A stretch of 44,430 bases of DNA, taken from the NCBI RefSeq assembly GCF_018205345.1, contig NZ_JADRHM010000012.1:1-44430 (forward strand). Reading direction: 5' to 3'. Positions 13,687 to 20,848 of the stretch are shown piece by piece. The stretch comes from Fusobacterium sp. DD2 (GTDB lineage: Bacteria > Fusobacteriota > Fusobacteriia > Fusobacteriales > Fusobacteriaceae). Below the pieces are notes generated by a model. The model did not search any database. It was not told the origin of the DNA and worked only from the letters and a program-made list of their open reading frames with translations. Position numbers and translations under genes: made by a program. Position 1 is the stretch's first letter, and each line of letters opens with the position of its first letter.

Positions 13687-14712
13687 CTATTTGACCTCCT
13701 TTAATTTTTTATTCATAAATGCCACAATTGCATTGACTTGCGAATTTTCATTCTTTGGGTCTTTCATTCCAAAGTTTAAATTATCGTCTCCTAACATTTT
13801 TGCTTTTTCTTCATTCTCTTTCTGTTGAAGTTTAACCAGCTCTACTGATAGCGATTCAATAGTTTGTATACTGTTGTATTTCGCGTCAAACACTAAGTCT
13901 GCATGATTTTTTATATTAATTTCATCGATAGCCTTTAATCTATTTCTTTCTGCTTGAACACCTTCATTCTTAACAGCTTCGTACACATCTTTATATTTAT
14001 CTTTCAGCATATCTACTGTAATAGTATCTGTTTGTGATTGTGTTGGCGCCGGTGCCGGCTCCTCTGGTTTATAATTATCAAATTTACTCAAATCAAATGC
14101 CATATTATTTACAATTAAATAATTACTTACATTCTTTATATCCTCATCAGACTCAAGTATTTCATCCACAAATCCATTGTTTTTAGCTTCAACCGCTGTC
14201 ATCCACGTTTCTTCATCCATCAGCTGTGATAACTCGTCCTTAGTTTTTCCTGTTTTCTTTGTGTAGGTTGCCACTATACACTCTTTCACTTTATCAAGCA
14301 TGTCTGCTGCTTTTTGTAAGTCCTGAGAACTTCCAGCAGCAAAAATCCAAGGGTTGTGTATCATAAATAAAGCATTTTTAGGCATTTTTACATTATCACA
14401 AGCTGAAGTAATTATTGTTGCAGCACTTGCAGCTAGTCCATCAATATAAGCAGTAACATTCGCCTTATGTGATTTTAAAGTATTAGCTATTGCCACAGCT
14501 GCAAATGCATTTCCTCCTGGACTATTGATGTGCAGATTAATCTCTTCCACATCTCCAAGCCCCTCAATATCTGATTTAAACTTTTTGTCTGTAATATCAT
14601 CCCAAAAGTCATCACTACCAATAGAACCATACAGTGTCATTTCAGCGGTTTTCCCGTCTTCATTCTTCACTAGGTTCCAGAACTTTTTCTTCTGATTCAT
14701 CATTTTTGGCAT
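13687..14712 (-). CDS. ClpP-like head maturation protease with C-terminal scaffold
   Basis: 341 aa. Residues 30-200 are a ClpP/S49-type serine protease: LHINSPGGNAFAA (residues 60-72), catalytic Ser96 in DGLAASAAT and His119 in MIHNPW. A Pro-rich linker (EEPAPAPTQSQTD) leads to a helical Lys/Glu-rich C-terminus (residues 225-341) that probably acts as the scaffold, as in lambda C/Nu3 where both functions share one gene. The start overlaps the portal gene end by 53 bases; the ATG three codons in (14703) has a better spaced AGGA. Confidence 0.9.
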   Translation of the reverse strand: MPKMMNQKKKFWNLVKNEDGKTAEMTLYGSIGSDDFWDDITDKKFKSDIEGLGDVEEINLHINSPGGNAFAAVAIANTLKSHKANVTAYIDGLAASAATIITSACDNVKMPKNALFMIHNPWIFAAGSSQDLQKAADMLDKVKECIVATYTKKTGKTKDELSQLMDEETWMTAVEAKNNGFVDEILESDEDIKNVSNYLIVNNMAFDLSKFDNYKPEEPAPAPTQSQTDTITVDMLKDKYKDVYEAVKNEGVQAERNRLKAIDEINIKNHADLVFDAKYNSIQTIESLSVELVKLQQKENEEKAKMLGDDNLNFGMKDPKNENSQVNAIVAFMNKKLKEVK

Positions 14713-16255
14713 TTCCTAACGTCACTCCTTTTTCTTTTAATATTTTTTGTTCCTTTGCTAATATTCTTACATTCTGCTCAAAATCTCCACCGTTCAATTC
14801 AACAGATTCCCGTGAACGTGTGGATAGTCCTTCCTGAATTTTCAACGCACTTGCTTTAGCTTCCTTGAGTGGATCTATTTGTCCTTGACTTGGGCCATTC
14901 CATTGGGCTGTACTCCAAGCCTTATCATATAAAGGATCAGTTCCAAAATTATATAATTCAATTCTACCCCTTAAAACTGCTTCTCTTAGCCACTCCTGGT
15001 ATATCAATTGTGTAAAATTGGATGCAAACCAGTCACGGCGTTTCCTAAACATCTTCCATGCCTCCAGCAAGGCTGCTCGAGATGCTGAGTAACTTGCACT
15101 GAAATGTTTCACAAGAAGCTCATAAGGTACTTCCAATGCTGCCCCTATCTGGCGTAATATTGCAGTTACAAATGGGTCAAACTGAGCATTAGGTCTTCCT
15201 GGGTTATTTGGATTAGCTCTTTCTCCTGGTCTAAACCCTACTATCATTCCTGGAGTCATTTCTATATCCAGTGCTCCTGTATCATCGTCATCATATGATG
15301 ATGAGACAACAGACTCTTCTGGACTAACTATAGATTGCTCTCCTATGTCTGCTGGTGTTACATTGTCTTTATCGGATTCTATAAATACCGCATACATTCC
15401 TGAAATAACTGCTGCCATTAACTCGGCATCTGTATATCTATCAAGTTGCTTAAGTGCCTCGATAACAGGTGAAAGCAGTGGAACTCCTCTAAGCTGCTCA
15501 GGTCGTTCCGGATTAATCAAATGTATAATATTACGTTGATTAGATTTTCCATAGACTGGTACATACACAGTATCAGTCGAGCCGCTATAAGTATCCAATG
15601 GATGTTCTTTAGCAACGTAGTATCCAGTTATCCAATTAGTTTTTTTATCAAGCTGAACTCCACAAATAACACTCTTGTCGTTAGTCTTATCATTTGGAGT
15701 TAAAACCCTATCAGGTTCTATCACTAGTAACTTCAAATGATATGGATTCCGAGGTGTTTCAAAATAATTAAGTTTAATAAAGCATTCTCCACTAAGTAAC
15801 ACAGTTAAAAATACAAGATCCTGCACTTGATAAAAATCTAGCAATCCATTTTGGTCAATTTTACTCTCTGACCATAGTCTAAATTCTCTTTCAATTTGTG
15901 TTTCTATCTCTTCTGCTGTGTTTTCGTCGAGCCCTAATAATTCATAATCAATAGCGGACTTAAGACGTAATCCACTCCCAACTGTATTTGATACAATCGT
16001 TTTAATTACTCCAGTTGCAGTTGGTGCTCCCATGTATAAGTCCCTGGAACGTTCCACAAGCCTATCTCTATTCTTGTATATGTCGTTTTTAACTCCACCA
16101 CCACGGCTTAACCACCCGAGCATAGAACTTTTAGTTGTTGAAGCCCCATGGTTACTATACCCGGTGTTTAATACAGCTAAATGTTGTCGAGCAAGTTGCC
16201 TTTTTAAAGCCCAGCTGGGACTTATCTGCACGATTGCTTTTTCTAATAACTTCAA
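14660..16255 (-). CDS. B: Portal protein (lambda gpB type)
   Basis: 531 aa, the length of lambda gpB. Motifs include SRDLYMGAPTATGVIKTIVSNTVGSG-type start region (residues 65-95), the LRGVPLLSPVIEALKQLDRYTDAELMAA segment near residue 255 and the SYSASRAALLEAWKMFRKRRDWF region near residue 400, all conserved in gpB portals. Located after the HsdS-like gene and before the protease. Forms the dodecamer at the DNA entry vertex. Confidence 0.93.
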   Translation of the reverse strand: MKLLEKAIVQISPSWALKRQLARQHLAVLNTGYSNHGASTTKSSMLGWLSRGGGVKNDIYKNRDRLVERSRDLYMGAPTATGVIKTIVSNTVGSGLRLKSAIDYELLGLDENTAEEIETQIEREFRLWSESKIDQNGLLDFYQVQDLVFLTVLLSGECFIKLNYFETPRNPYHLKLLVIEPDRVLTPNDKTNDKSVICGVQLDKKTNWITGYYVAKEHPLDTYSGSTDTVYVPVYGKSNQRNIIHLINPERPEQLRGVPLLSPVIEALKQLDRYTDAELMAAVISGMYAVFIESDKDNVTPADIGEQSIVSPEESVVSSSYDDDDTGALDIEMTPGMIVGFRPGERANPNNPGRPNAQFDPFVTAILRQIGAALEVPYELLVKHFSASYSASRAALLEAWKMFRKRRDWFASNFTQLIYQEWLREAVLRGRIELYNFGTDPLYDKAWSTAQWNGPSQGQIDPLKEAKASALKIQEGLSTRSRESVELNGGDFEQNVRILAKEQKILKEKGVTLGNAKNDESEEKVLEPSEE

Positions 16256-16276: not shown

Positions 16277-16729
16277 TTATGATACAAACATATCATTTAG
16301 TAAATGCTTTTTCACAATAGTTGTCCTCTCTATTAGTTTTTTTTCCTTCTCCAGTGCTGTATCTATTAAATTTATTCTGTAAGCTATATAATCTTGAGTT
16401 GGCTTATCATGGACTGGAATTATAAAATTTTTTAATGCGTCAAATTGCAGGTTTATCGTAGTCGCATATTTAGTTATAAATCTATTCCAATCACGTTCCA
16501 TACTTGTAAATATGTATTTAGGATTATGATCCTCCGCAACAACTAATACTGCATACTTAGTTTCGACCTCTCCTGAATTTTCAAGTATTTCCATAGGTGT
16601 ACTTATCATCGCTGATAGTGGTATAAGTATGCTCTTTGCGGGGTATGTCTTGCCTTTAATAGCTCTTTCCACATCGCCAATATCAAGTATTGATTTCCAA
16701 CTGCATTTGTTCAAGTTTATCTTTTCCAT
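16277..16729 (-). CDS. Half-size type I specificity (HsdS-like) subunit
   Basis: 150 aa. The N-terminal 90 residues are a short possible target recognition domain; the rest shows the S-subunit layout: YIFTSMERDWNRFI, TTINLQFDALKNFIIPVHD, Gln-Asp-Tyr-Ile as in 'EEQxxI', and a coiled coil LIDTALEKEKKLIERTTIVKKHLLNDMF. Normal HsdS has two TRDs and about 400 residues; this one has a single domain, so two copies would have to pair, as known for half-S proteins. Its start lies 47 bases inside hsdM. Together they should make a modification enzyme. The recognition site cannot be read from sequence. Confidence 0.7.
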   Translation of the reverse strand: MEKINLNKCSWKSILDIGDVERAIKGKTYPAKSILIPLSAMISTPMEILENSGEVETKYAVLVVAEDHNPKYIFTSMERDWNRFITKYATTINLQFDALKNFIIPVHDKPTQDYIAYRINLIDTALEKEKKLIERTTIVKKHLLNDMFVS

Positions 16730-17957
16730 TTTCCACTAATTCCTCCATCTGATTTGTTACTGTTTCTATTTCCCGTCTTTTTTCTACTGTTCCAGCTGTT
16801 AAATCTTTCATCATATTTACTAACTCTATTTCGGTATCAAGAATCTCTTTATCTAATACAGCCAGTCCTTCTATAGCTTCTTCAAGTGTATAAGGTAGAA
16901 CTTCAGGCTCAAAAGTATCCACATATCGGGGAATATTTAAGTTATAATCATTTCTTTCAACTTCATTAATCAGGCATACAGCTGCATACTTATCAATAAA
17001 CTTTCTTTGTTCCACTGATTCTATGAGTCTATTGATATGGATATCAGTCATAAAATTAGTAGCACCGTCTTTTTCATAGTCCTTAGAACAATCCACAAAT
17101 AGTATGTCTTTCCTTGTTCGATTCTTTTTTAGAATCATTATTAAAACTGGTATTCCAGTGTTTAAAAATAACTTGTCCGGTAGTCCTATTATGGTGTCTA
17201 TTAGATTATTTTGAATTAACCTAGTTCTGATTTTCTCTTCTGTTCCACCACGAAATAATACTCCGTGTGGTAATATTGCGACCAGTGTCCCGGTTTCTTC
17301 TAATCTATCCAACGAATCTAACAGAAATGCATAGTCAGCTTTACTCTTTGGAGCTAGTCCATAGTCTTTAAACCTATTTTCTTCCTGTCTTTCCTTAGCA
17401 GCATCCCATTTTAACGAATACGGTGGATTAGATATTATAGTATCCATCTTCATCTCTGGAACTTCTGTAAGAACTTCAATGTCACTATATTTATCAGTTT
17501 TAGTTAACTTATAGCAATTAAAAACCTCTCTTGTTAAGGCGTCCCCGTGTATTATAATTGCGTTGGTATTTCTTATACACATATTAAATAGGAGAATAGG
17601 AATTGCACGACCCGAATATTCAAGACAATAGAAATTATCAGCTCCTTTTTGCCATTGCTTCAACGTCAGACCTCCAGTACCAGCACAAATATCGCCAGTC
17701 AATCCCTGCTGATCCGTAAGCCTTGATACAATTTCACAGACACAATCTGGTGTAAAATCCTGTTTTAGTCGGTCTCTATCAGAATGCTCCGACTGATAGT
17801 ATTCAGTAAACCAATCATGGTCAAGTGGTTCTCCCAACTCCATGAATTTATTAAGAAGTGTTTCCTTTTCCTCACTTAATAATTTACTTAACAGAGTATC
17901 CGGCATTTTATAAGAGTCCTTTATTCCTAATATCTCATTTACTTTTTCACTGGTCAT
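16683..17957 (-). CDS. hsdM: Type I-like N6-adenine DNA methyltransferase (HsdM-like), phage-borne
   Basis: 424 aa. SAM motif I DICAGTGG at residues 89-96, after the family start RLKQDFTPDCVCEIV; catalytic motif IV NPPY at 177-180; then KADYAFLLDSLDRL and LVAILPHGVLFRGGTEEKIR, all features of type I M subunits. The C-terminus (from residue 355) is a long coiled coil that should bind the S subunit. No HsdR gene is present. The gene has a good GGAGGTGAG site and lies in the packaging operon between terminase and portal, so expression is late. Self-methylation of phage DNA before packaging is the likely role (inference). Confidence 0.9.
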   Translation of the reverse strand: MTSEKVNEILGIKDSYKMPDTLLSKLLSEEKETLLNKFMELGEPLDHDWFTEYYQSEHSDRDRLKQDFTPDCVCEIVSRLTDQQGLTGDICAGTGGLTLKQWQKGADNFYCLEYSGRAIPILLFNMCIRNTNAIIIHGDALTREVFNCYKLTKTDKYSDIEVLTEVPEMKMDTIISNPPYSLKWDAAKERQEENRFKDYGLAPKSKADYAFLLDSLDRLEETGTLVAILPHGVLFRGGTEEKIRTRLIQNNLIDTIIGLPDKLFLNTGIPVLIMILKKNRTRKDILFVDCSKDYEKDGATNFMTDIHINRLIESVEQRKFIDKYAAVCLINEVERNDYNLNIPRYVDTFEPEVLPYTLEEAIEGLAVLDKEILDTEIELVNMMKDLTAGTVEKRREIETVTNQMEELVENGKDKLEQMQLEINT

Positions 17958-17990: not shown

Positions 17991-18254
17991 TTATATCTTT
18001 ACGCACACATTTTCCCATTTTTTATAGGCATCTAAATAAAGTTCTTGTTTATCTCCATTCAGAGTCACTTCGTAGTACATCCCATCGCTTACTGTAGTAG
18101 ATAGTAGTGCCTTGTTATTCTGCAGTACTTTGCAGCTCCATACCACGAAAACATCATCCATAGTTAATTTCTTATTATCTGTTTTCTCTACTCTGCTGTT
18201 AAAATAATCAACTATTTCTTTTTTACTTAACTCAATAAATTTTTTACTGTCCAT
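17991..18254 (-). CDS. DUF6275-like phage protein
   Basis: 87 aa from the ATG at 18254, which has GGAGG with good spacing (an upstream ATG at 18266 is less likely because it overlaps this site). The motifs VFVVWSCKVLQNNKALLSTT and YLDAYKKWENV resemble the DUF6275 family found in phages; I know of no function. It lies just before hsdM and may belong to the same inserted block. Confidence 0.7.
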   Translation of the reverse strand: MDSKKFIELSKKEIVDYFNSRVEKTDNKKLTMDDVFVVWSCKVLQNNKALLSTTVSDGMYYEVTLNGDKQELYLDAYKKWENVCVKI

Positions 18255-18271
18255 ACTAACCTCCATACTTT

Positions 18272-18496
18272 TTATAAATCTCTAGGTATTACCCTTCTTG
18301 CTCCTCTTCTTCTTTTGCCTCTTACTTTAAGTAGCTCATTTTCCCAATAAGCTCTCCCTTTTTGAATCTCAGCTAAATCTGCTCTTTCAAGTTCTCTAGT
18401 TCCAATTCTATATCTTTGGCCTGATAAGACTTTTATTTCTGCTTCTCTGTATAGTCCTATCATCTCAAGACATTGTTTTTCTGTATGATTAGCCAT
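18272..18496 (-). CDS. gpW-like head-tail joining protein (DUF6148-like)
   Basis: 74 aa, strongly basic C-terminus (KRRRGARRVIPRD). The helical pattern 'EMIGLYREAEIKVLSGQRYRIGTRELERADLAEIQKGRAYWENEL' is the usual form of gpW/DUF6148 proteins next to large terminase genes; lambda gpW stabilises packaged heads. Its start overlaps the terL stop by one base. Confidence 0.75.
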   Translation of the reverse strand: MANHTEKQCLEMIGLYREAEIKVLSGQRYRIGTRELERADLAEIQKGRAYWENELLKVRGKRRRGARRVIPRDL

Positions 18497-20340
18497 TATA
18501 TTTTCACTCCTTTCGATATAACCCTTACTCGTGGTCTTTGCACTGGTTTTGCAGCATTCTCTATCTTCCCAACTGTATAAGTCTGTGTTAAGTCAGGATT
18601 TGCTATCTTTAATGCTGCGTATGCATAGTTTCTCAAGTCTAATGGTTCATTACGTTTAGTTCCTATAAGTTTCCATACAGTCTTTTTAACTCCTTTTTGC
18701 CAAACTGTAGTTTTTACTTCTGATGTCAATCCTTTAAAGTATGCATCATCATACCCACGTTCTGGATTTTTAGGGAAGTGCATATAAGCAGGATTATCTT
18801 CATTAAGCTTCAATCTTGATATGATTGTTTCCTTTCCAGTATTTACTCCAATTGTAAATAAAGGTATACGCATCCTATTGGTCCGTGATGGTCTTGAAAT
18901 GAATGCCACTCCATCACCTCCACGACCCTTTATCCCAAATACTCTCCACAGCTCTCTTGGTTTTACAAACTGATAAGCTTCCTGAGTATAGTGCCCACCT
19001 GTATCTACACATGTGCACAGAATTTTTATTTTTTCACCATCTGCATACTTAAACTCAGTATCCAAATATCTAGCAAGTTGATTCCACACATCCTGCGAAG
19101 CTGGTGATCCAAAGAACTGTTTATAATAGACACCCCAGCTTTCTTCTCCTTCACCCCAACCGACTACTTCAATCTCCAGTCTGTCATCCTGTACGTCAAC
19201 TCCTGCTGTAAGTACTTTAACTCCGTCTGGTATTTCAGCAGTATATTCTTCTCTTCTATTTGCAACATCAAGAAAGTTTATTTTCTCTGTACGTTCTTCC
19301 CAGGTTTCACCCAAAGATGTATTTGTAAATACCTTCATCAGTTGTACATTTCCTTTTGCTTCCTTGAATTTCTTTATTATTGAATCCCATGTAGTAAATG
19401 GGCTGTATAGCTCTGATATATGAAATCCTCTAATACTATAGTCCTGAAGATTCTCCAGTTCTGTCTGCCAAACTCCAAATCTTAAATTTTTCTTCCACTC
19501 ATACTCATTAGATACTTCCATACATTCTTCGCATTTATGCCCTACTGGGTCAAATATGATATTTTTCCATTGTAGCTTTTGTAATGCGCCGCATTTTGGG
19601 CACGGAACATAATACTCCTCTTGAGTTGAATTTAAGTACTCCATCTCAATACGACTTTCGCCCTTAACTGTAGGCGTGCTCGTAACGACTATTTTTTTAT
19701 TCCAGAAGGTTTTAGTTCTTTCCATTGCTAATTTCAACGGATCTCCTTCTCCCTGGACATCTCCTACAAATCTGTCAATTTCATCTGCAAGTAATATCCT
19801 GATTGGTCTACTTGATAACTCAGTTGCAGAATTTGAACCGGTCAACTTTATATATCCGCCCGGAAATTCTTTCTGAAGTACTGTATTTCTACCATCATCG
19901 CTTTGAATTTTATCGCGAAGTTGTGGAGTACTTTGAATCATATCATCCAGTCTTGTACTAGAAAAATCTTCTGCCATGCTTTGCGTTGGCAGTAAAAACA
20001 TAATTGGCGCCGGGTCGTAATCAGTATAGTATCCAAAGGCATTCAACAGTATATCTGTTTTAGATAGCTGTGCTCCGTACATCATTACAACTTTTTCAGT
20101 TTTCTTGTCGGATATAGCTCTCATTACTTCCCTTTGGTATGGTACCCTATCAGTGCTCCAGCGTCCTGGCTCAGCAGAACTTTTTGAGCTAAGGATTCTA
20201 TACTGATCCGCCCAGGTGTCAATTGTCAATTTTGGCGGTGGCTTGAGAACTTGAAAGATTTTAGCAAACAAATCAACGGTCTTTTTTTCTCCGCTTAGAC
20301 TTAGCTGTCTTGTTACTTCGGCTTTTTTCTTTTCCGTCAT
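18496..20340 (-). CDS. terL: Terminase large subunit (lambda gpA type)
   Basis: 614 aa from the ATG at 20340, chosen because GGAGG lies 9 bases upstream (an ATG 3 codons earlier lies within this site). Walker A-like GAQLSKTD near residue 90, Walker B ILLADEID near 183-190, and a four-cysteine zinc motif (CPKCG...CEEC) near residue 245-275. The nuclease domain begins with the acidic AGVDVQDDRLEIEVVGWG. It cuts and packages DNA with TerS, and in the lambda family acts at cos sites. Overlaps terS by 68 bases. Confidence 0.93.
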   Translation of the reverse strand: MTEKKKAEVTRQLSLSGEKKTVDLFAKIFQVLKPPPKLTIDTWADQYRILSSKSSAEPGRWSTDRVPYQREVMRAISDKKTEKVVMMYGAQLSKTDILLNAFGYYTDYDPAPIMFLLPTQSMAEDFSSTRLDDMIQSTPQLRDKIQSDDGRNTVLQKEFPGGYIKLTGSNSATELSSRPIRILLADEIDRFVGDVQGEGDPLKLAMERTKTFWNKKIVVTSTPTVKGESRIEMEYLNSTQEEYYVPCPKCGALQKLQWKNIIFDPVGHKCEECMEVSNEYEWKKNLRFGVWQTELENLQDYSIRGFHISELYSPFTTWDSIIKKFKEAKGNVQLMKVFTNTSLGETWEERTEKINFLDVANRREEYTAEIPDGVKVLTAGVDVQDDRLEIEVVGWGEGEESWGVYYKQFFGSPASQDVWNQLARYLDTEFKYADGEKIKILCTCVDTGGHYTQEAYQFVKPRELWRVFGIKGRGGDGVAFISRPSRTNRMRIPLFTIGVNTGKETIISRLKLNEDNPAYMHFPKNPERGYDDAYFKGLTSEVKTTVWQKGVKKTVWKLIGTKRNEPLDLRNYAYAALKIANPDLTQTYTVGKIENAAKPVQRPRVRVISKGVKI

Positions 20341-20848
20341 CTTCATCATCCTCCAGTACCAAATTTGTATTCATAAACATTTCTTTAGAGTATGCGCTTA
20401 ATTCCAGCAATGCATCCTCTATACTGTTCATAACTATACTTTGTATGTCTCCCAAGTTTTCACATCCAACAACCAGTGGAGCTACCTTATTTGGTATTGA
20501 AAGCAATTTTCCTTTCAGATTGAGCAGCATGCCAGTCATAACCTTTTCTACTATGGCCGCTTCATGAAGTTCATTTCTTAATTCTGCTATCTTTATGCTC
20601 TTAAGTTCAATGTCCTTATCAAGCTTTTCAGTTTCCTTCTTAAGCTTGAGTTCTTTCAGGTCTCCATTTCCGTTATTCGACAATTTTTGATACTCCACAT
20701 AAGCTTGAACATTTTCCAGGAAATAATACTTGTTTCCTTTCTTTGTAAATGTTCCTTCCTGTGCTAACTGTCTGACATATCGGTCTGTTATGCCTAAAAT
20801 TTTAGCCAACTCTACTCCCCTGATTAATACCCCTTCTTTAATCTCCAT
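20273..20848 (-). CDS. terS: Terminase small subunit (Nu1 type)
   Basis: 191 aa from the ATG at 20848 with AGGAGGTGACC upstream. The N-terminal winged helix-turn-helix (VELAKILGITDRYVRQLAQEG) resembles Nu1 of lambda; residues 75-110 form a coiled coil, followed by a helical region and a basic C-terminus (SRSNKTAKSKRRKK) for contact with TerL. The frame is open 33 codons farther to a GTG at 20947, but that extension covers the GC-richer possible cos region and is less likely coding. Confidence 0.85.
   Translation of the reverse strand: MEIKEGVLIRGVELAKILGITDRYVRQLAQEGTFTKKGNKYYFLENVQAYVEYQKLSNNGNGDLKELKLKKETEKLDKDIELKSIKIAELRNELHEAAIVEKVMTGMLLNLKGKLLSIPNKVAPLVVGCENLGDIQSIVMNSIEDALLELSAYSKEMFMNTNLVLEDDEDDGKEKSRSNKTAKSKRRKKDR

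What the first reader, a model, noticed from the sequence alone, without database searches (positions are those of the whole stretch)
16277..17957. HsdM plus half-size HsdS, without HsdR, inside the packaging operon
A type I-like methyltransferase (motifs DICAGTGG and NPPY) and a single-TRD S-like subunit sit between terminase and portal genes, where lambda-type phages normally have none. No restriction subunit is present. Late expression would methylate phage DNA as it is packaged, protecting it from type I restriction in the next host. A half-S that pairs to read a symmetric site would be an unusual specificity. The 87-aa DUF6275-like gene may be part of the same block.
Basis: partly seen in the sequence, partly recalled or inferred. 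Interest (0 to 1): 0.78.

Follow-up and report, generated by a model that had tools for sequence, protein, structure and literature searches.

The report
Phage-borne compact type I-like methyltransferase pair
This prophage carries a small two-gene DNA-methylating enzyme, with no cutting partner, right beside its DNA-packaging genes; the same gene pair recurs in dozens of phages of Gram-positive bacteria and most likely marks phage DNA so that host restriction enzymes leave it alone, and in most relatives it also carries a short tail resembling the signal that docks proteins onto the replication clamp.

Summary
The window encodes a 424-aa type I-like adenine methyltransferase, M (16683-17957, minus strand), overlapped by a 150-aa single-TRD S-like protein (16277-16729). 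They lie between the gpW-like adaptor and the portal gene, with no HsdR in the prophage. S alone misses Pfam's cut-off, but its family profile, PADLOC specificity models and a confident AlphaFold model (pLDDT 92) all match HsdS.

It is not a one-off. The same M plus mini-S pair (143-162 aa) occurs in dozens of Firmicutes phages, usually near the terminase genes. Two metagenomic phages have it in the same gpW-portal slot. Fusobacterium phage JD-Fnp2 has the slot empty. In architecture it is a compact, orphan, phage-borne 'Type 1½' methyltransferase (like M.AhdI, M2S2). A symmetric split site is therefore expected, but was not shown.

One unexpected feature: 14 of 25 non-redundant relatives end in a beta-clamp-binding-like motif (QLSLL, QLTLF, QISFF), against 0.05 expected by shuffling and 0 of 34 ordinary HsdMs. 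One relative has it at the N-terminus; a natural M-S fusion has it after S. The window's own tail (EQMQLEINT) is degenerate. DUF6275 is a separate phage gene. Anti-restriction by self-methylation remains inference.

The parts
16683..17957 (-). M: compact type I-like N6-adenine DNA methyltransferase subunit, 424 aa
   Evidence: PF02384 E 1e-63; phrog_6380 E 1.8e-105; profile hits HsdM structures 3LKD, EcoR124I M; no HsdM_N hit
17670..17693 (-). M motif I (SAM binding) DICAGTGG, aa 89-96
   Evidence: sequence; GTG of the motif invariant in 25 relatives
17418..17429 (-). M motif IV (catalytic) NPPY, aa 177-180
   Evidence: sequence; NPP invariant, Y/F last, in 25 relatives
16686..16712 (-). M C-terminal tail EQMQLEINT, at the place where most relatives carry a beta-clamp-binding-like motif (QLSLL/QLTLW/QLTLF); degenerate here
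16277..16729 (-). S: single-TRD 'mini-S' specificity protein, 150 aa
   Evidence: PADLOC Specificity_I E 1.4e-10; profile vs 1YF2 3.8e-16; AF2 pLDDT 91.9 and Foldseek to HsdS
16406..16702 (-). S target-recognition domain (aa 10-108): family motifs ERA..(K)xYP.G...Q.SAT and TGINxQ
   Evidence: alignments A3/A5; DSSP of model
16289..16405 (-). S conserved-region long helix (aa 109-147) ending LLNDM, the presumed dimerisation/M-binding helix
   Evidence: AF2 helix H109-147; K140, L144, M147 conserved
16683..16729 (-). 47-nt out-of-frame overlap of the end of M and the start of S
   Evidence: similar overlaps in relatives
17991..18266 (-). DUF6275 protein (91 aa), neighbour only
   Evidence: PF19791 E 1.6e-34; free-standing in other phages
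18272..18496 (-). gpW-like head-tail adaptor / DUF6148, upstream border of the insertion
   Evidence: phrog_118 E 1.3e-21; adjacent to portal in JD-Fnp2
14660..16255 (-). Portal gene, downstream border of the insertion
   Evidence: the query 14660-18496 matches JD-Fnp2 portal/adaptor at 68% DNA identity over 44% of its length
18496..20349 (-). Terminase large subunit
   Evidence: same gene order as the annotated terminase in JD-Fnp2; homologues in L045, L109, L110

Best explanation
The pair is a phage-encoded orphan DNA methyltransferase of the 'Type 1 1/2' architecture. One compact M and one single-TRD S form a heterodimer that pairs through the S helices into M2S2, recognises an interrupted palindrome, and puts N6-methyladenine in each half-site. 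Transcribed with the packaging operon, it would methylate newly made phage DNA before packaging, so the virion's DNA resists host enzymes that cut the unmethylated site. In most relatives the M tail probably docks on the host sliding clamp, so that methylation follows replication; in this prophage that tail has decayed and docking is doubtful. Shown: the homologies, intact motifs, constant pairing, the natural fusion, absence of R in the prophage, position, and enrichment of the tail motif. Inferred: activity, M2S2, the symmetric site, late timing, clamp binding and protection.
For: M has intact motif I and NPPY and matches solved HsdM structures. S is HsdS-like by profile, PADLOC and fold. 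In nearly every full-length relative M is followed at once by a 143-162 aa S, usually with overlapping stop and start, and L105 is a natural M-S fusion. S. suis phages with M about 90% identical carry two TRD alleles: DNA identity drops to 52-66% in parts of the TRD, with 72-100% in the rest of S; this is expected if the TRD sets specificity. No HsdR in the prophage; host HsdRs are elsewhere. All genes from TerL to portal are co-directional with gaps of 33 nt or less. The insertion lies at a slot empty in JD-Fnp2 and filled alike in L050/L051. M.AhdI is the M2S2 precedent. Tail motif 14/25 against 0.047 by shuffle and 0/34 ordinary HsdM.
Against: No methylation or binding data. Both subunits are smaller than in M.AhdI (S about 25 kDa, M about 60 kDa), so the TRD may read little sequence. 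The mini-S TRD scaffold is more conserved across the family than its helix, unlike what is usual for HsdS, so target diversity may be limited. The AF2 model of the M-S fusion gives no reliable domain arrangement (pTM 0.55). L040, L042 and L180 carry M without an adjacent S. The window's own tail lacks the clamp motif.
Confidence: 0.72

Rival explanations
1. The methyl mark serves packaging rather than anti-restriction: M-S methylates the phage pac/cos region and so times or licenses terminase cutting, as known for Dam sites at pac of phage P1 (P1 from general knowledge).
For: The cassette repeatedly sits within about 0.5-4 kb of TerS/TerL or between gpW and portal, with different terminase families.
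Against: Other members lie by replication or tail genes (L039, L043), and a close relative such as JD-Fnp2 packages without it. The boundary next to the terminase is also a common site for accessory genes.
Confidence: 0.1
2. The S-like protein acts mainly on its own as a DNA- or protein-binding regulator, like the protein Esub1 that was co-crystallised with phage paratox.
For: The model matches Esub1 (8VSR, 8VSQ) with TM-score about 0.67 normalised by query.
Against: S is almost always beside M, overlaps it, and is fused to it in L105; the HsdS match 1YF2 is stronger.
Confidence: 0.06
3. M-S borrows a host HsdR and becomes a full restriction enzyme against superinfecting phages.
For: The host has two HsdR genes, and EcoR124I-type half-S enzymes keep type I architecture.
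Against: M lacks the N-terminal HsdM domain and shares only 31-39% identity with host Ms over part of its length. Relatives occur in many unrelated hosts. Interchangeable subunits are normally confined to one type I family.
Confidence: 0.05
4. The pair is a decaying, inactive remnant.
For: The M tail is degenerate, and S scores below the Pfam cut-off on its own.
Against: Both frames are open, catalytic motifs are intact, the conserved S residues Y29, N93 and K140 are kept, and S folds confidently.
Confidence: 0.07

Closest known systems
'Type 1 1/2' MTases M.AhdI, M.BsaBI, M.PshAI (PMC3874165, PMC2878638)
   Same: separate M and single-TRD S genes; gamma-type N6-adenine MTase fold; pairing of two half-S expected
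   Different: those belong to bacterial R-M systems with a type II endonuclease; AhdI S is about 25 kDa and M about 60 kDa, against 150 aa and 424 aa here; here phage-borne, orphan, in a packaging operon
Type IC enzymes with truncated S (EcoR124I delta50, EcoDXXI::Tn5, NgoAV)
   Same: single-TRD S proteins forming homodimers that read palindromes
   Different: those are truncated forms of full-length S with full-length M; the mini-S here is a stable family, not a recent truncation
Phage orphan DNA MTases (Murphy et al. 2013, cited in PMC8637289 and PMC10286901)
   Same: phage-encoded methylation without a nuclease, thought to evade restriction
   Different: those named in the sources read (SPR, phi50, MM1, VO1) are described as MTase genes without a separate specificity subunit; here specificity is in a separate S protein
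phrog_6380 / phrog_1071 'DNA methyltransferase' phage families
   Same: M belongs to phrog_6380 (E 1.8e-105); phrog_1071 matches its N-terminal part
   Different: the phrog names carry no two-subunit or clamp-motif description; the N-half-only proteins lack NPPY
DNMT1-PCNA coupling (eukaryotes; PMC9690074)
   Same: a maintenance MTase carrying a clamp-binding motif, the functional analogue suggested by the tails of most relatives
   Different: unrelated enzyme, 5mC, PCNA; clamp binding unproven here and the motif is degenerate in the window's copy

Membership tests
Type I restriction-modification system | HsdR motor/nuclease encoded with M and S | tested here: not met
   no HsdR in the window; host HsdR only at C4 and C8
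Type I restriction-modification system | S with two TRDs | tested here: not met
   S is 150 aa with one TRD and one long helix
Type I restriction-modification system | M with N6_Mtase domain, motif I and NPPY | tested here: met
   PF02384 E 1e-63; DICAGTGG, NPPY; below the TIGR00497 hsdM equivalog cut-off, 163.9 vs 242.75
Type I restriction-modification system | HsdM N-terminal domain | tested here: not met
   only about 65 aa precede the N6_Mtase domain; no HsdM_N hit
'Type 1 1/2' (M2S2) methyltransferase | separate M gene and single-TRD S gene | tested here: met
'Type 1 1/2' (M2S2) methyltransferase | M2S2 assembly | not testable with these tools
   no complex prediction available; the M-S fusion L105 supports 1:1 M:S only
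'Type 1 1/2' (M2S2) methyltransferase | methylates a symmetric bipartite site | not testable with these tools
   needs methylome data
'Type 1 1/2' (M2S2) methyltransferase | partner type II endonuclease | tested here: not met
   neighbours are gpW, DUF6275 and portal; an orphan variant
Phage orphan DNA methyltransferase | MTase in a phage genome without cognate nuclease | tested here: met
   prophage context, no HsdR in the window
Phage orphan DNA methyltransferase | active methylation that protects phage DNA | not testable with these tools
   needs experiment
Beta-clamp-binding proteins | QL(S/D)LF-type motif at a terminus | tested here: not met
   window M ends EQMQLEINT; 14/25 relatives meet a strict motif at the C-terminus

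The most novel reading that the evidence does not exclude
The family to which this pair belongs is a clamp-tethered phage methyltransferase. M binds the host DnaN clamp through a terminal QLxLF-type motif, so the two-subunit MTase travels with the replication fork and methylates nascent phage DNA before host restriction can act, a bacterial counterpart of DNMT1-PCNA. The copy in this window has lost the canonical motif and may rely on its place in the late operon instead.
Probability: 0.4. Interest if true: 0.75.

Novelty: new variant of a known kind. Interest (0 to 1): 0.48.

Why it matters
The cassette is a very small natural M plus S methyltransferase, easy to express and to use for learning how half-S subunits read DNA; phages with two natural TRD alleles on about 90% identical Ms give a ready experiment. 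It suggests a recurrent phage route to restriction evasion by a two-subunit orphan enzyme placed near the packaging genes. If the terminal motifs of the relatives do bind the sliding clamp, they would show replication-coupled DNA methylation in phages; I found no report of it in the papers searched.

Tried and rejected
Finding S relatives directly: a single-protein scan found none and the S alignment was too diverse for pattern search; S was found through M instead. A scan for relatives of the M-S fusion L105 found none. Mini-S in other Fusobacteriales: only the own genome of 96 has a full-length mini-S hit; the strongest others lie mostly in larger HsdS frames, so the pair looks newly acquired in this lineage. 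I considered that loss of the clamp motif goes with lying next to packaging genes, since early members seemed to fit. I dropped it when L034, L067, L111 and L036 proved to have both the motif and a nearby terminase. AF2 of L105 to see how S docks on M: both domains fold, the arrangement is not reliable. DUF6275 as a partner: rejected. VRR-NUC and SNF2 genes as a disguised R: rejected, they are typical phage replication-region genes that also occur near the cassette in L045 and L109. A promoter or terminator inside the operon: counts did not exceed shuffles.

Full report
What is there. On the minus strand the packaging operon reads TerS - TerL - gpW/DUF6148 - DUF6275 - M - S - portal - ClpP protease/scaffold. 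M (16683-17957) is 424 aa, matches N6_Mtase (PF02384, E 1e-63) over residues 66-350 and phrog_6380 (E 1.8e-105), and has DICAGTGG (aa 89-96) and NPPY (aa 177-180). S (16277-16729) is 150 aa and starts 47 nt before M ends, in another frame. Gaps from TerL to portal are -1, 5, 33, -47 and 21 nt, and most starts have a Shine-Dalgarno-like sequence, so the genes look like one transcription unit; promoter-like and terminator-like counts did not exceed shuffles. The prophage side includes an integrase and repressor-like genes, with host genes (hslU-like, brnQ-like; by my reading of the translations) beyond.

Is the small protein S-like? A profile of 23 relatives finds the S subunit structures 1YF2 (3.8e-16), 1YDX and EcoR124I S. 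PADLOC specificity models align its residues 30-149 with the C-terminal end of S (1.4e-10). Its AlphaFold2 model has mean pLDDT 91.9, with a small TRD and one 39-residue helix. Foldseek ranks 1YF2 first (TM 0.80 by query), then other HsdS structures. It is a genuine single-TRD S protein, smaller than the 25-kDa S of M.AhdI.

A recurrent cassette. Scans of viral contigs, phage records, plasmids and genomes gave dozens of loci with M directly followed by a 143-162 aa S, mostly from Firmicutes where a host is named: Enterococcus, Streptococcus, Limosilactobacillus, Veillonella, Lachnospiraceae, Vagococcus. L105 is a natural M-S fusion in an Anaeroplasma assembly. M identities to the window are 36-51% for full-length members. 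Exceptions are L040 and L042 (M followed by an integrase) and a Lactobacillus johnsonii plasmid. Among 96 Fusobacteriales genomes only the window's own has a full-length mini-S match; the others with a hit are mostly two-TRD-sized HsdS frames. So the window's copy is isolated in its order.

Position. L050 and L051 carry TerS-TerL-gpW-M-S-portal, the same slot. L045, L058, L109, L110, L034, L067, L038, L111, L036, L037, L103, L069 and a Vagococcus phage-like plasmid have the pair within about 4 kb upstream of terminase genes. The F. nucleatum phage JD-Fnp2, with 68% DNA identity in this region, has adaptor and portal 40 nt apart with nothing between: an empty site. DUF6275 is not tied to the pair: it stands beside lysis genes in FNU_1P and FNU4 and touches the cassette in one other locus, L035.

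Does the TRD set specificity? Among S. suis phages M is about 90% identical at DNA level, while parts of the TRD fall to 52-66% between two allele groups, against 72-100% in the rest of S. L108 and L059 share one allele despite 89% identical Ms. This resembles TRD exchange in classical S genes. Yet across the whole family the TRD motifs (ERA, YP.G, SAT, TGINxQ) are more conserved than the long helix, so the scaffold, and possibly part of the target, is held constant.

Clamp-like tails. While reading the tails of relatives I saw EQLTLW, VQLTLF, EQLSLL, SQISFF, QMSLFD and QQLSLFDY. A strict pattern Q[LIM][STDE][LF][FLW] occurs in the last 30 residues of 14 of 25 non-redundant Ms; shuffled tails give 0.047 on average and never more than 2. 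In the remaining 9,877 residues it occurs once, at the N-terminus of L064. None of 34 ordinary HsdM-type proteins has even a looser form: 19 from the host and relatives, 15 from the genomes that carry the cassette. In the tree L064 (motif at the N-terminus) and L105 (motif after the fused S) are sisters with 100/97 support, so the motif moved while being kept. Bacterial clamp-binding proteins carry QL(S/D)LF, often at the C-terminus (PMC9690074). Clamp binding is therefore a reasonable inference for the family, but not shown. The window's tail, EQMQLEINT, aligns with EQLQIRLFE of L038 but lacks the final aromatic residue; clamp binding is doubtful here. The pattern was chosen after seeing some tails, and relatives are not independent.

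How it probably works. By homology with M.AhdI (2M+2S, GACN5GTC), two mini-S would pair through their long helices and each hold one M, giving a symmetric split site. Transcription with the head genes suggests late expression. The likeliest benefit is virion DNA already methylated at sites that future hosts restrict. The host has two type I loci with HsdR, so restriction pressure exists, but whether its sites are those methylated by M-S cannot be told. The main rival with its own appeal is a role of the mark in packaging itself, given the recurring terminase neighbourhood.

Verdict. Observation confirmed; interpretation partly supported. It is a new, compact, orphan, phage-borne variant of a known kind (Type 1 1/2 methyltransferase). 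The most interesting lead is the clamp-like tail of the family, which this particular copy has nearly lost.

Noticed in passing
L071-L102, e.g. L087:6992-7660, L093:1756-2418: Many Lactobacillales phages carry a roughly 206-242 aa protein equal to only the N-terminal part of this M family (SAM motif I kept, no NPPY; cf. phrog_1071). It cannot be a complete methyltransferase, yet it is widely conserved.
   Followed up: partly
L066:6905-8291, L067:6971-8267, L081:6890-8369, L093:6887-8372: In several phages M is split into two ORFs between motif I and NPPY with both halves kept; in L066 and L067 the mini-S follows.
   Followed up: partly
L041:8211-8476, L043:5970-6106, window 16683-16729: The M tail often overlaps the start of S out of frame, by 32 to 266 nt in these and in L050, so the tail is partly overprinted on the S gene.
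   Followed up: partly
L212:2657-7114 (host contig C8): A host type I locus reads as M (862 aa) followed by one 1485-aa frame holding two S domains and HsdR in frame, an apparent S-R fusion, then a further S gene. It could be an assembly artefact.
   Followed up: partly
L213:1607-4869 (host contig C4): The second host type I locus has several S genes in both orientations around a tyrosine recombinase, the layout of a phase-variable invertible hsdS system, with a shortened M ORF.
   Followed up: no
window 16277-16729 (model): The mini-S model also matches Esub1, the protein solved in complex with phage paratox (8VSR, 8VSQ), suggesting that other phage S-like proteins have partners beyond M.
   Followed up: partly
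L035:8248-8977: The one other place where DUF6275 touches the cassette: it overlaps the end of S by 8 nt.
   Followed up: no
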